Assembly (NCBI GenBank): GCA_030524285.1
Contig: JAUNGQ010000010.1
Coordinates: forward strand, 1 to 43,308
DNA: 43,308 nucleotides
Direction: 5' to 3'
DNA from: Eubacteriales bacterium
Lineage (GTDB): Bacteria > Bacillota > Clostridia > Oscillospirales > Butyricicoccaceae
In this document: positions 7,408 through 11,660 of the stretch, one piece after another
Layout: each line of letters starts with the position of its first letter
How positions within the stretch are numbered: the first letter of the stretch is position 1
Notes under the pieces: model-generated
Seen by the model: the letters and a program-made list of their open reading frames with translations, nothing else
Told to the model about the DNA's origin: nothing
Database searches by the model: none
Translations under genes and position numbers: made by a program

Positions 7408-9321
7408 ATGGCAAAGCAGCAGTTTCAGGCAGAATCCAAACGTCTGCTGGACATGATGATTAACTCGATCTACACACACAAGGAAATTTTCCTGCGTGAG
7501 TTAATCTCCAACGCAAGCGATGCAATTGACAAGCGTCATTTCCGTTCCCTGACAGATTCCTCCCTTGTACCGGAGGGCGGATTTGAAATCCATCTGGCAG
7601 TGGATGAGGACAACCGTACTCTGACCATTTCCGATAACGGTATCGGCATGACCAGAGAAGAGCTGGAGCAGAACCTCGGCACCATTGCGCAGAGCGGTTC
7701 TCTGGCATTTAAGAAGGAGAACCAGACGGAAGACACCGATATTATCGGTCAGTTTGGTGTCGGTTTCTACGCTTCCTTTATGGTAGCCTCCAATGTCAAG
7801 GTAATTTCCAAGGCATGTGGCAGTGATCAGGCATATGTCTGGGAATCCGACGGTGCAGATGGCTTCACCATTGAACCGACAGAAAAGGACTCCTATGGTA
7901 CAGAAATTATTCTGACCATCAAGCAGAATCCGGAAGAAGAGGATGCGGACAGCTATGATGAATTCCTCCAGACCTATCGCCTGTCCGGACTGGTACGCAA
8001 GTATTCCGACTACATCCGTTACCCGATCAAGATGCTGATGCCGCATTCGCAGGCAAAGCCGAAGCCGGAGGATGCACCGGAGGATTACCAGCCGGAGTAT
8101 GAAACCATTTATACCGAGGATACGCTGAATTCCATGGTTCCGCTGTGGAAGAAGGATAAGAAAGAAATCACACAGGATGAATACGATGAATTCTACCGCA
8201 ACAAGTTCATGGATTACATGAAGCCGGCGCGTACCATCCATTCCCATTCCGAGGGCCTGACCGCGTCCTATGACGCCCTGTTGTATATCCCGTCGCAGGC
8301 ACCATATGATTACTATTCCAAGGACTTCACCAAGGGCCTTGCACTGTATACCTCCGGCGTCCTGATTATGGACAAGTGTGCTGACCTGTTGCCGGATTAT
8401 TTCGGCTTTGTCCGCGGCCTTGTCGATTCCTCTGACCTGTCACTGAACATCTCTCGTGAAATGCTCCAGCATGACCGCCAGCTCAAGGCAATTGCCATCA
8501 GCCTGGAAAAGAAAATCAAGTCCGAGCTGCTCAAGATGCAGAAGGATGAGCGTGAGGAATATGAGAAGTTCTGGACTGCCTTCGGCTATTCCATCAAGGT
8601 TGGCGCATATGCAAACTATGGTGCAGACAAGGAAAAGCTGCGTGATCTGATTCTGTTCTATTCCGCAAAGGAAAAGAAGATGATTACCCTGAAGGAATAC
8701 CGCGCTGCCATGCCGGAAGGTCAGGAAGAAATCTATTATGCTTCCGGTTCCAGCATTGATCTGCTGGACAAGCTGCCGCAGGCTGAAATGGTACGCAAGC
8801 ATGATTATGATATCCTGTATCTCACTGCTGATATTGATGAATTTGTCATCAACCTGCTGGAATCACAGGACGAAAAGAAATTCCGTTCCATCACCGCAGG
8901 TGATCTGAACCTGTCCTCTGAGGAGGAAAAGAAGGAAGCAGAAGAGAAGTCCACTGCCAACCGTGCGATGTTCGATATGATGAAGGAAGCGCTGGACGGC
9001 AAGGTAAAGGATGTCCGTGTATCCTCCCGTCTGGTAAGCAATCCGGTCTGCCTGACCTCTGACGGCAGCCTGTCCATTGAAATGGAACGTGTACTCAACA
9101 ATGTTCAGAACAGCGGCGGACAGTTCAATGCAGAAAAGATTCTGGAAATCAATGCTTCCCATCCGATTTTTGAGACACTGATCAAGCTGTACGTCAATGA
9201 TCCGGAAAAGCTCAAATCCTACACCTCCCTGCTGTACAATCAGGCACTGCTGATTGCAGGTATCCCGATTGAGGATCCGGCTGCATTCTCCAATGCAATC
9301 TGTGACCTGATGGCGCAGTAA
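7408..9321 (+). CDS. htpG: Molecular chaperone HtpG (Hsp90)
   Basis: A 637-residue ATP-dependent dimeric cytosolic chaperone, standard length. The N-terminal GHKL ATPase is clear: 'LRELISNASDAIDK' with the Mg2+-binding Asn, 'ISDNGIGMTREEL' (adenine-binding Asp and glycines) and 'GQFGVGFYASFMVA'. The middle domain contains 'LNISREMLQHDRQLKAI', with the conserved Arg that contacts ATP. The C-terminal dimerisation region is complete. It is monocistronic: a CIRCE-covered promoter lies upstream and an intrinsic terminator 13 bp downstream. Confidence 0.97.
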   Translation: MAKQQFQAESKRLLDMMINSIYTHKEIFLRELISNASDAIDKRHFRSLTDSSLVPEGGFEIHLAVDEDNRTLTISDNGIGMTREELEQNLGTIAQSGSLAFKKENQTEDTDIIGQFGVGFYASFMVASNVKVISKACGSDQAYVWESDGADGFTIEPTEKDSYGTEIILTIKQNPEEEDADSYDEFLQTYRLSGLVRKYSDYIRYPIKMLMPHSQAKPKPEDAPEDYQPEYETIYTEDTLNSMVPLWKKDKKEITQDEYDEFYRNKFMDYMKPARTIHSHSEGLTASYDALLYIPSQAPYDYYSKDFTKGLALYTSGVLIMDKCADLLPDYFGFVRGLVDSSDLSLNISREMLQHDRQLKAIAISLEKKIKSELLKMQKDEREEYEKFWTAFGYSIKVGAYANYGADKEKLRDLILFYSAKEKKMITLKEYRAAMPEGQEEIYYASGSSIDLLDKLPQAEMVRKHDYDILYLTADIDEFVINLLESQDEKKFRSITAGDLNLSSEEEKKEAEEKSTANRAMFDMMKEALDGKVKDVRVSSRLVSNPVCLTSDGSLSIEMERVLNNVQNSGGQFNAEKILEINASHPIFETLIKLYVNDPEKLKSYTSLLYNQALLIAGIPIEDPAAFSNAICDLMAQ

Positions 9322-9333
9322 CCATATTCCCAC

Positions 9334-9364
9334 AAAGGCTCCTTCGGATGAGGGAGCCTTTTTT
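9334..9364 (+). terminator. htpG terminator
   Basis: Stem AAGGCTCC / GGGAGCCTT followed by TTTTTT. It resembles the GGCTCC-type dispersed palindromes of this genome. Confidence 0.85.
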
Positions 9365-9384
9365 CTGTACAGATAGATTGTCAG

Positions 9385-9435
9385 AAAAAGCGAAGAATCC
9401 ACAGGCTGTGGATAAACCTGCGGATTCTTCTTCGC
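9385..9435 (-). terminator. Terminator of the micropeptide cluster
   Basis: On the minus strand a long stem (GCGAAGAAGAATCCGCAGG against CCTGTGGATTCTTCGC, one 3-nt bulge) followed by TTTTT (9385-9389). It lies 33 bp beyond the last peptide stop, so all four peptides could share one transcript. Confidence 0.75.
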
Positions 9436-9467
9436 GATAAACGTATATCAATAAAGGTGGAATGGGT

Positions 9468-9587
9468 TTAGCGATAATCATAACGCTCATAGTGTACCGG
9501 AGCTACCGCAGTAGCCTTGGTCATATGAGCCGGAATGGTGCCGATTACCGGCAGTGCAACAAACAGTGCAGTGAGTGCAGTCATCAT
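9468..9587 (-). CDS. IPxHM micropeptide P1 (39 residues), last of four
   Basis: No known family. It starts Met-Met-Thr-Ala, has the hydrophobic segment 'LTALFVALPVIGTIPAHM', then the tail 'TKATAVAPVHYERYDYR'. The ribosome site GAAAGAGG lies 9-10 nt upstream. It is a paralogue of the three peptides upstream on the same strand: shared MMTA start, LPV followed three residues later by IP, then His-Met, and a Tyr/Asp-rich end. The hydrophobic stretch is long enough for one short membrane helix broken by two prolines. The family conservation and ribosome sites argue that it is translated. Export signal, toxin and small membrane regulator are all possible roles. Confidence 0.7.
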   Translation of the reverse strand: MMTALTALFVALPVIGTIPAHMTKATAVAPVHYERYDYR

Positions 9588-9631
9588 AGTAATTACCTCT
9601 TTCTCATATCAGTCTGGTCCGTTTTCGGACG

Positions 9632-9733
9632 TTATCTCATGTCGTATACTTCTTCTGCTTCCGGCTGGATATTCATCATGTGTACCGGAATAACTGCCAG
9701 AACCGGCAGGATTACAAACAATGCGGTCATCAT
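9632..9733 (-). CDS. IPxHM micropeptide P2 (33 residues), duplicate of P3
   Basis: Met-Met-Thr-Ala start, hydrophobic core 'LFVILPVLAVIPVHMM', acidic tail 'NIQPEAEEVYDMR'. The ribosome site GAAAGAGG lies 10 nt upstream. The coding bases are identical to P3, so the duplication is recent. A small hairpin (GTCCG-AAAA-CGGAC) follows the stop directly. Function unknown. Confidence 0.7.
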   Translation of the reverse strand: MMTALFVILPVLAVIPVHMMNIQPEAEEVYDMR

Positions 9734-9778
9734 AATCAATTACCTCTTTCTTATATCAGTCTGGTCCGTTTTCGGACG

Positions 9779-9880
9779 TTATCTCATGTCGTATACTTCT
9801 TCTGCTTCCGGCTGGATATTCATCATGTGTACCGGAATAACTGCCAGAACCGGCAGGATTACAAACAATGCGGTCATCAT
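9779..9880 (-). CDS. IPxHM micropeptide P3 (33 residues), duplicate of P2
   Basis: Protein and bases are the same as P2. Only the ribosome-site side differs (here AAAAGAGGGAGAT-type instead of GAAAGAGG). The same GTCCG-AAAA-CGGAC hairpin follows the stop. The pair forms a 147-bp tandem unit. Confidence 0.7.
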   Translation of the reverse strand: MMTALFVILPVLAVIPVHMMNIQPEAEEVYDMR

Positions 9881-9904
9881 AATATCTCCCTCTTTTCTAA
9901 TATA

Positions 9905-10024
9905 TTAAAATGTCAGATAATCAAATTCGTCCTCAGTATAGGACAATCGGGCGGCCATGTGTGCCGGAATCATGCCGACACATGGGAGAATCAACAGTAA
10001 AAGTGTCATAACAGCAGTCATCAT
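9905..10024 (-). CDS. IPxHM micropeptide P4 (39 residues), first of four
   Basis: Starts Met-Met-Thr-Ala, core 'VMTLLLLILPCVGMIPAHM', tail 'AARLSYTEDEFDYLTF'. GAGGGA lies 5-6 nt upstream of the ATG. It shares the LP...IPxHM motif with P1-P3 and has a single Cys between the two prolines. The frame stays open far upstream, but that part lacks a ribosome site and shows no protein-like composition, so the short start is preferred. As the first gene after the probable promoter region it would lead the cluster transcript. Function unknown. Confidence 0.65.
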   Translation of the reverse strand: MMTAVMTLLLLILPCVGMIPAHMAARLSYTEDEFDYLTF

Positions 10025-10366
10025 AAATCCCTCATTTCGTATCTGTTCGCTGTTGTTTTGAATGTGGAAAGAGGTTTCCTTTTCGGTTTTCCTCTTTGTT
10101 TTTATGGCTTTATTATAATCAGAAAGTATGAATTTGGCTTCCATTTTTTTGCGAAAGAATAGGCTTTTTTTCCGTCTTTTTCCGGTAGCTGCTCCAGTTT
10201 TTTTCAGTTTCTTGCGGTTACAAATCAGCAACCGGAAATCGATCGCTTTTTCCCTGTTATCCTGCCATAATCGATCGCCTTTTTTATGTTCATATGCTTG
10301 TTTTATTGTTGTAATATTTCGATGCTCCATGCACACATCTTTGTGATTTGTGTAACATTGCAGCGC
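10025..10366. other. Intergenic region upstream of the micropeptide cluster
   Basis: About 340 bp without a supported gene. It contains TATAAT on the minus strand (10112-10117) with a poor -35, a leader hairpin AAAGAGG/CCTCTTT (about 10072-10101), and two direct copies of AATCGATCGC (10237-10246 and 10269-10278) spaced 32 bp. These last are candidate regulator sites. The minus-strand frame running into P4 is open here but looks non-coding. Confidence 0.4.
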
Positions 10367-10399
10367 AAAAAGACCTCCGGCAAAATACCGGAGGTCTAA
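10367..10399 (-). terminator. Terminator of the RCC1-repeat gene
   Basis: Perfect 10-bp stem AGACCTCCGG / CCGGAGGTCT (10371-10397) followed by TTTTT on the minus strand, 15 bp after the stop codon. Confidence 0.9.
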
Positions 10400-10412
10400 A
10401 ACTTTTTTCAAA

Positions 10413-11660
10413 TTACTTTTTCAGATACACTGCTGTTGCAGTCTTCTTAAATTGATCTTCTGAGCCAATGCCCATCTGTCCATACAGATTAGAGCCAATG
10501 GTACGCAGTACACCATCAGAAGAACGGTACATGCTGTTGAAGCCGCCTGCTGCAATCGCTTCTACATTTTCAGCCAGCTTCTTTGGCTTAGCCTGATAGT
10601 AGATGGTTTCTTCGCCGACTGTATACGTACCATCGCCATATTTCAGTCCCAACTGGCAATAGTTGTTTACGCCCCACGTATATGCCGTGCCATCGCTCTT
10701 GAGCGCTACGGCATGTGCGCTGGCTGCTGCAATATCGGTTACATCCTCCATAATTTTCAGCGGGGTTTTCTGGATATTGTTCTTGGCATCATCAACCTTC
10801 GTTGTACCGACGGAACCAACCCGGTTATCGCCCCAGCCATACAGCACACCGTCCTCCGTCAGTGCAAATGCCATGTATCTGCTGCCGCAGGCAACCTTGG
10901 TGACACCTTCCATCACCTTTGCCGGCTTGGACTGGTATGCTTCACCGTTGCTGTTCTCGCTGTCAACCTTTTCCAAACCCAGCTGGTGATCAACATCATA
11001 GCCCCATGCATACAGCGTGCCATCTGTGGTAATTGCCATGGAATAATCTTCACCTGCGTCAATATAAGCGACATCGTCCATCAGCTTATACGGTGTAGAC
11101 ATACACGGATAACCACTTTCGTCGGTCTGGTCACACTCACTCTCGGAAATGCCCAGTGCGCCATCCTTGTTTCTTCCCCAGACATACAGTGCGCCATCCG
11201 TGCCGATTGCCATGGCGTGCTTGGAGCCTGCTGCTACCATAGCAACATCCTCCATCATTTTCTCCGGTTCCATACGACTGATGTTCATTCCATCACCCAT
11301 CTGATAGCTGGTATTATCGCCCCATGCATACAGATCCCCACTCTTGTTGAGCGCAAAGGAAAGTTCATCGCCTGCTGCTACCTGTACCACTCTGCCCGGC
11401 ACTTCAACCTTGACCGGGGCGGACTTATTATCACAGGTTACGTCACCGAGCTCACCCATCAGATTATGTCCCCACGCATAAACATTTCCGCCTGCATCAA
11501 CAGCCAGCATATGGTCTTCACCAATTGCCATTTCCTGTGAGGTTATTTTTTCTGTTGAGCCGTTGCTGCTCAGCCCGATAAACATTGCCACCGCAATAAC
11601 CACCACAACAATTGCCGTTCCCAGCAATGCTGCAATTGCTTTATTTCTTTCTCTTGACAT
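10413..11660 (-). CDS. Membrane-anchored RCC1-repeat (beta-propeller) protein
   Basis: A 415-residue protein. Residues about 8-30 ('AIAALLGTAIVVVVIAVAMF') form an uncleaved signal anchor, which would place the rest outside the membrane. The body holds about seven RCC1/ATS1 repeats with the D-G-x-L-Y-A-W-G core. Examples are 'VYAWGHNLMGELG', 'LYAWGDNTSYQMG', 'LYVWGRNKDGALG' and 'LYGWGDNRVGSVG'; the last repeat is degenerate ('LRTIGSNLYGQMG'). Seven repeats fit one closed seven-blade propeller. Such bacterial proteins are usually uncharacterised binding modules. It follows gluQ on the same strand after a 73-bp gap holding a hairpin. GAGG precedes the ATG. Confidence 0.85.
   Translation of the reverse strand: MSRERNKAIAALLGTAIVVVVIAVAMFIGLSSNGSTEKITSQEMAIGEDHMLAVDAGGNVYAWGHNLMGELGDVTCDNKSAPVKVEVPGRVVQVAAGDELSFALNKSGDLYAWGDNTSYQMGDGMNISRMEPEKMMEDVAMVAAGSKHAMAIGTDGALYVWGRNKDGALGISESECDQTDESGYPCMSTPYKLMDDVAYIDAGEDYSMAITTDGTLYAWGYDVDHQLGLEKVDSENSNGEAYQSKPAKVMEGVTKVACGSRYMAFALTEDGVLYGWGDNRVGSVGTTKVDDAKNNIQKTPLKIMEDVTDIAAASAHAVALKSDGTAYTWGVNNYCQLGLKYGDGTYTVGEETIYYQAKPKKLAENVEAIAAGGFNSMYRSSDGVLRTIGSNLYGQMGIGSEDQFKKTATAVYLKK

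What the first reader, a model, noticed from the sequence alone, without database searches (positions are those of the whole stretch)
9468..10024. Cluster of four paralogous micropeptides with an LP...IPxHM motif
Four minus-strand genes of 33-39 codons, each with its own ribosome site, encode peptides sharing a Met-Met-Thr-Ala start, a hydrophobic core with LP and then IP followed by x-His-Met, and a Tyr/Asp-containing polar tail ('EEVYDMR', 'HYERYDYR', 'DEFDYLTF'). They sit on one probable transcript ending in a strong terminator. I do not recognise the family. The shape (short proline-kinked helix, variable tail) suits secreted signals, membrane toxins or small membrane regulators. Repeated gene birth with divergent tails suggests selection on the tail.
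Basis: partly seen in the sequence, partly recalled or inferred. Interest (0 to 1): 0.85.

Follow-up and report, generated by a model that had tools for sequence, protein, structure and literature searches.

The report
Stand-alone arrays of conserved membrane micropeptides
A Butyricicoccus-like bacterium carries a short run of four tiny look-alike genes for 33-39-residue, probably membrane-embedded peptides; relatives keep the run with the same three peptide types, and the first gene seems to carry a second, RNA- or DNA-level message of unknown use.

Summary
The four ORFs are real genes at the stated places: class A (10024-9905), two identical class B copies (9880-9779, 9733-9632; a recent 147-bp tandem duplication) and class C (9587-9468), with a conserved promoter and a strong terminator. 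The family lies in 9 of 12 genomes of the genus and 2 of 2 of a second genus; in a 392-genome sample of the class a C-type profile found only the own genome. Codon-position bias and pN/pS of 0.41-0.59 show protein-level selection. The idea of diversifying tails fails: A, B and C are conserved classes whose tail ends (FDYL[TV]F, YDMR, YDYR) are class-constant; YDYR spans both genera. What recurs is gene dosage. Unexpectedly, class A carries extra nucleotide-level constraint: 9 of 10 conserved four-fold codons are invariant over seven genomes, against 4 of 91 in the neighbouring RCC1 gene, nearly all in the start region and a perfect hairpin stem. Best reading: membrane micropeptides acting in quantity through a conserved tail tip, from a dedicated mRNA whose first cistron doubles as a control element. 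The target is unknown; toxin and signal readings stay open.

The parts
9905..10024 (-). class A micropeptide gene (first cistron), MMTAVMTLLLLILPCVGMIPAHMAARLSYTEDEFDYLTF; the start conserved in relatives is the ATG at 10021
   Evidence: orthologues in 9 loci of 8 genomes, this one included; pN/pS 0.41
9779..9880 (-). class B micropeptide gene, copy 1, ...EEVYDMR
   Evidence: pN/pS of class 0.41
9632..9733 (-). class B micropeptide gene, copy 2, identical peptide
   Evidence: 147-bp tandem duplication 9591-9737 / 9738-9884, 99% identical
9468..9587 (-). class C micropeptide gene, ...HYERYDYR
   Evidence: pN/pS of class 0.59; YDYR end in 14 of 14 aligned C-type sequences of two genera
10111..10156 (-). 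promoter module TTTCGCAA - 31 nt - TATAATA
   Evidence: aligned; exact pattern (derived from these loci) found at 10 array loci of 9 genomes, plus 3 other places; reversed control 0 in 12 genomes; no hit at the solitary class C gene of G004 C57. The generic consensus scan did not list it
10068..10097 (-). 5' leader hairpin (AAAGAGG...CCTCTTT); sequence varies while a stem is kept in most relatives
   Evidence: first 62 nt fold better than at least 292 of 300 shuffles in 6 of 10 leaders, 280 in G004, 262 in G009, no signal in G005a and G010; with the whole leader only 4 of 10 stay at 22 or fewer shuffles as good
10001..10038 (-). nearly invariant block 1: ribosome site to codon 7 of class A
   Evidence: per-codon table
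9960..9982 (-). block 2 inside class A: hairpin TGTGTCGG-CATGATT-CCGGCACA, codons 14-21
   Evidence: identical in 8 of 9 class A genes, 1 mismatch in the ninth, nowhere else in 12 genus genomes at 3 mismatches or fewer; paired in the consensus fold, without covariation
9392..9430 (-). intrinsic terminator closing the array

Best explanation
A dedicated, probably well-expressed short mRNA makes several copies of 33-39-residue peptides that insert in the cell membrane by an N-terminal hydrophobic helix (about residues 1-20, kinked at LPxxGxIPxH in classes A-C) and show a short polar, aromatic tail ending in YDYR, YDMR or FDYLTF. The tail tip is the recognition part, bound by a partner common to both genera; dosage matters, so copies are added in tandem. 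The first cistron (class A) also carries a nucleotide element (start block plus internal hairpin) that most likely sets translation or stability of the array mRNA. Shown: genes, classes, protein-level selection, promoter and terminator anatomy, extra constraint in class A. Inferred: membrane insertion, a tail-binding partner, high expression, and what the nucleotide element does.
For: Nine of 12 genus genomes and 2 of 2 g14 genomes carry the family. The most hydrophobic 19-residue window is residues 1-19 in all five peptides tested, KD mean 1.77-2.36. L, P, H and the tail D are invariant in 23 genus peptides. pN/pS 0.41, 0.41, 0.59. Apparently independent copy gain: B doubled in G000, G008 and G005 C117, C-type repeated in G024 and G036. 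No shared neighbour: HSP90 and RCC1 genes at one site, an oxidoreductase-like gene (by eye) at a second, other genes in G036. Conserved promoter; A-tracts centred near -50 from the -10 box in 10 of 10 loci, near -62 in 8, near -84 in 8, near -74 in 4 (no null tested). Class A four-fold sites of conserved codons 94% identical pairwise, against 43% in RCC1 and 54% in htpG; 9 of 10 invariant against 4 of 91 in RCC1 over the same seven genomes.
Against: No expression, localisation or partner data. AlphaFold2 gives one helix from 2 to 37 at mean pLDDT 68, so neither kink nor free tail is reproduced. No flanking positive charge, so topology is uncertain. g14 peptides lack LP, and one has Q for H. 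At other degenerate codons class A shows no excess over htpG (6 of 16 against 146 of 353 invariant, same five genomes). The hairpin has no covariation. G010 and the g14 loci read have no class A, so that element is not needed for the other peptides.
Confidence: 0.45

Rival explanations
1. Membrane toxins of the type I toxin-antitoxin style (Fst/Ldr-like), held down by an antisense RNA that overlaps the class A start; the nucleotide constraint in class A is the RNA-RNA interaction region.
For: Size and layout like Fst (33 aa, helix with P and G, acidic disordered C-end; passages of PMC8309996). Tandem copies. Strong constraint around the class A start and an internal hairpin. In G008 the opposite strand has a terminator-like hairpin in the leader (L028 5360-5343) and a promoter-like site behind class B1 (L028 5677-5650) that would make an RNA over class A.
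Against: Those G008 sites come from scans near chance level (5 promoter-like sites against 3.1 in shuffles, 2 terminator-like against 1.2). In the window no + strand promoter-like site in 9300-10500 and no terminator-like score for the leader hairpin, though that scan also missed the conserved sense promoter. Fst motif APxxxG not met (here P-xx-G, with A for G in two B peptides). Ribosome sites are not hidden as a rule: mean unpaired 0.11-0.68 against mRNA means of 0.42-0.48, lowest for A in G005 C148. No toxin model hit.
Confidence: 0.2
2. Exported peptide signals: the hydrophobic part is an export segment and the last 7-10 residues (...YDYR) are released as pheromone.
For: The C-terminal tip is the most constant part; alanine-rich stretch before it in several C and g14 types; many copies would raise the signal level (inference).
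Against: No receptor or transporter recognised beside the array at the sites where both or one flank could be read; in G036 an ABC transporter-like gene pair lies about 2.5 kb away behind a permease-like gene (by eye). No positive n-region. A tip constant over two genera is unlike species-specific pheromones (general knowledge).
Confidence: 0.2
3. Structural or spore-associated small membrane proteins needed in bulk.
For: Copy gain, stand-alone operon, no common partner gene.
Against: The -10 box looks like an ordinary TATAAT; no sporulation gene among the three window neighbours scanned. No match in 3 of 12 genus genomes at E 0.01.
Confidence: 0.1

Closest known systems
[quoted passage not shown]
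   Same: 30-39 aa, one hydrophobic helix with proline and glycine, charged C-end (PMC8309996 passages); several Ldr copies in E. coli (recalled)
   Different: LPxxGxIPxH instead of APxxxG; three conserved classes on one mRNA; no antisense promoter found in the window; no family-model hit
Conserved small-protein families of microbiome catalogues (Sberro set, as cited in PMC11364881, passages)
   Same: short, conserved, often predicted membrane, mostly unannotated
   Different: here array anatomy, three paralogue classes and an overlapping nucleotide constraint are described. Whether single peptides are already entries there was not checked (supplements closed)
Short hydrophobic peptide pheromones (SHP/Rgg; abstract start of PMC7564271 in a search listing)
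   Same: small hydrophobic precursor with a meaningful C-terminal end (recalled)
   Different: no receptor gene recognised next door; tail acidic and aromatic; tandem copies

Membership tests
Fst/Ldr type I toxins | motif APxxxGxxx in the hydrophobic helix | tested here: not met
   alignment of 23 peptides has P-xx-G (A for G in two), not P-xxx-G (motif from PMC8309996)
Fst/Ldr type I toxins | hit to a curated family model | tested here: not met
   no Fst/Ldr model at E <= 1 for 3 window peptides in Pfam and NCBIfam or 14 C-type peptides in Pfam
Fst/Ldr type I toxins | 30-40 aa, one hydrophobic helix and a polar or charged tail | tested here: met
   hydropathy of five peptides; helix in a low-confidence model. 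Membrane location itself untested
Fst/Ldr type I toxins | antisense RNA antitoxin | tested here: inconclusive
   no + strand promoter-like site in the window; opposite-strand promoter- and terminator-like sites in G008 near chance level; class A constraint
Fst/Ldr type I toxins | toxic on expression | not testable with these tools
   needs bench work
RRNPP/SHP pheromone cassettes | receptor or regulator gene beside the peptide gene | tested here: not met
   window neighbours are HSP90 and RCC1 genes (Pfam); rubrerythrin-like in G009 and oxidoreductase-like in G001 by eye. One flank of the G005 C148 and G024 copies is cut by the contig end
Phage- or plasmid-borne modules | occurrence on phages or plasmids | tested here: not met
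   no relative: viral contigs with the class A alignment, phages with one class A peptide, plasmids with one class C peptide; class B was not tried

The most novel reading that the evidence does not exclude
Class A is a dual-function cistron: its codons are read as a membrane peptide and at the same time form a conserved RNA control element (start block plus internal hairpin) that governs the whole micropeptide array, perhaps by pairing with a still unseen small RNA.
Probability: 0.4. Interest if true: 0.7.

Novelty: new variant of a known kind. Interest (0 to 1): 0.5.

Why it matters
It turns an unannotated stretch into a testable operon: three conserved micropeptide classes with fixed tail tips in Butyricicoccus-like bacteria, with a defined promoter. 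If the dual reading of class A holds, it is a compact case of a sub-40-codon gene under protein and nucleotide selection at once, which short-gene surveys that rely on synonymous change would score poorly.

Tried and rejected
Known families: Pfam and NCBIfam on 3 window peptides (only MotB_plug at E 0.19), Pfam on 14 C-type peptides (four families, each in 1 or 2 of 14, best PRD1_DD at E 0.0071 in one), PHROGs and PADLOC on 23 members (best 0.083, and none), solved structures (best 0.088), Rfam on the window (none). Nothing credible.

Search hits set aside as chance: G007 E 0.42 and the other hits above E 0.2; G113 E 0.0067 inside an 814-residue frame; G057 and G048 E 0.03-0.09 inside frames of about 290 residues. 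The promoter pattern also hit G010 C4, G009 C18:23497 and G011 C29, which precede ordinary-looking genes (by eye), so no regulon was learned.

A pattern for the YDYR end with two mismatches was too loose to use. Four-fold sites in class B are invariant in 3 of 3 codons over five genomes, but pairwise identity is 67%, with the two identical window copies counted, so no claim is made for B; class C gave 5 of 8 over three genomes. The 5' stabiliser (STAB-SD) idea for the leader rests on recall and a search listing and does not fit G009, G005a or G010.

Full report
Observation. On the minus strand four ORFs of 39, 33, 33 and 39 codons lie at 10024-9905, 9880-9779, 9733-9632 and 9587-9468, each behind a GAGG-type ribosome site, followed by a strong terminator at 9430-9392. 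The two middle genes encode the same peptide and are a 147-bp tandem duplication at 99% identity.

Homologues. A search of 99 related genomes with the class B peptide matched 9, of which I keep 7. A 23-peptide profile matched 9 of 12 genus genomes and 2 of 2 genomes of genus g14 at E 0.01 or better, 11 of 87 family genomes in all. A 14-peptide C-type profile matched 10 of 396 order genomes, one of which (G113) I take as chance, and only the own genome among 392 genomes of the class at E 0.001. The order and class samples are drawn evenly from larger groups, so rare members elsewhere may be missed. Named records with class A are eight MAG loci labelled Clostridia, Eubacteriales or Butyricicoccus. 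Viral contigs, phages and plasmids gave nothing with the queries tried.

Classes. The 29 genes of nine genus genomes fall in three classes by tail: A (FDYLTF 6, FDYLVF 3), B (YDMR, 10, the two identical window copies included), C (YDYR, 10). The nearest neighbour in another locus is of the same class in 28 of 28 (one identical copy left out), which is partly circular because the tails named the classes. Order: A-B-B-C in G000 and G008, A-B-C in G006, G004, G005 C148 and G002, A-B-B in G005 C117, A-C in G009 and G001, C alone in G010. A solitary C with a decayed A before it sits in G004 C57. g14 has C-like repeats ending in YDYR, most with SHLANP and without the LP. The 14 C-type sequences leave out G005 C148 and some G024 copies; the former ends in YDYR too.

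Sites. In eight genomes the array lies by the RCC1-repeat gene. Beyond it comes htpG (HSP90) in G000, G006, G004, G008, G005 C117 and G010, and in G009 a rubrerythrin-like gene, by eye. In G003 the htpG and RCC1 matches are about 115 nt apart, so there is no array there. In G001 and G005 C148 the array follows an oxidoreductase-like gene, by eye. G036 has other neighbours. No common partner gene was seen.

Protein selection. Differences by codon position are 273/103/371, 288/205/446 and 605/547/885 for A, B, C; pN/pS 0.41, 0.41, 0.59. One printed pair, the two B copies of G005 C117, has dN/dS 2.06 on pS 0.04. In class A pS is 0.46 in the tail and 0.24 in the first 21 codons.

Nucleotide constraint in class A. 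At four-fold codons with a conserved residue, third positions agree in 94% of pairwise comparisons in A, 67% in B, 58% in C, 43% in RCC1 and 54% in htpG (genome sets differ). With the same seven genomes 9 of 10 such codons are invariant in A and 4 of 91 in RCC1; with the same five, 10 of 11 in A, 24 of 109 in htpG and 11 of 102 in RCC1. Other degenerate codons show no clear excess: 4 of 14 in A against 19 of 106 in RCC1 (seven genomes), 6 of 16 in A against 146 of 353 in htpG and 35 of 128 in RCC1 (five). A binomial estimate at the RCC1 rate gives 2.4e-9 for 7 of 8 over nine loci, but it takes a rate from seven genomes and ignores shared descent. Over all nine loci codons 2-4, 6, 14, 16-20, 30 and 35 keep one spelling, while codons 8-12 between the blocks vary; that argues against recent transfer of the whole gene. 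Block 2 is a perfect stem TGTGTCGG / CCGGCACA (one G-U pair); G001 breaks one pair, and no compensatory change exists. Over the seven genomes codon 24 is also invariant and lies outside both blocks (read from the table).

Expression signals. TTTCGCAA-31-TATAATA is found at ten array loci of nine genomes, with three further hits before other genes and none for the reversed control; the pattern was made from these loci, so only its rarity elsewhere is informative. The generic promoter scan did not list it in the window. A-tracts recur near -50 (10 of 10), -62 (8), -84 (8) and -74 (4) from the -10 box. A leader stem is kept with changed sequence in most relatives, not in G005a or G010, and the signal weakens when the whole leader is folded. 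Ribosome sites are neither open nor hidden as a rule.

Structure. AlphaFold2 on nine class A sequences gives one helix 2-37, mean pLDDT 68. It does not show a kink or a free tail, but it is a weak model.

Mechanism. Most likely these are membrane micropeptides that work in quantity and through their tail tip, with the first cistron also carrying a nucleotide-level control. Membrane placement, tail partner, high expression and the role of the element are inferred. The Fst-like toxin and pheromone readings are kept at 0.2 each; in G008 opposite-strand promoter- and terminator-like sites would fit an antisense RNA but are near chance level. Literature searches listed no paper that I recognised as being on this family; the library is open-access only. 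I saw passages of PMC8309996 and PMC11364881 and listings of the rest; supplements were closed, so prior listing of single peptides is possible.

Noticed in passing
window 9777-9764 and 9630-9617: A small hairpin (GTCCG AAAA CGGAC) follows each class B stop codon; several relatives show a different short stem at the same place (seen by eye, not computed).
   Followed up: no
window 9462-9908, + strand: A 148-codon open frame antisense to the array, probably a by-product of the repeated sequence; not tested.
   Followed up: no
L067 (G004 C57): A second locus with an intact class C gene behind a decayed class A copy, near a contig end; its promoter pattern is missing.
   Followed up: partly
window 10413-11660: The neighbouring RCC1-repeat protein has an N-terminal hydrophobic segment by eye, so it may be membrane-anchored; it is kept in G003 without the array.
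   Followed up: partly
L063 and L065 (g14), roughly 115-160 nt before the first peptide gene: A shared AAAGGCRGGCGATYCC element with a short arginine-rich frame behind it in both genomes (by eye).
   Followed up: no
L026 (G005 C148) and L063 (G024), upstream of the -10 box: The stretch ATATCGAAAGACAAA is shared by promoters of the two genera (by eye), so the promoter may be conserved with the peptides.
   Followed up: no
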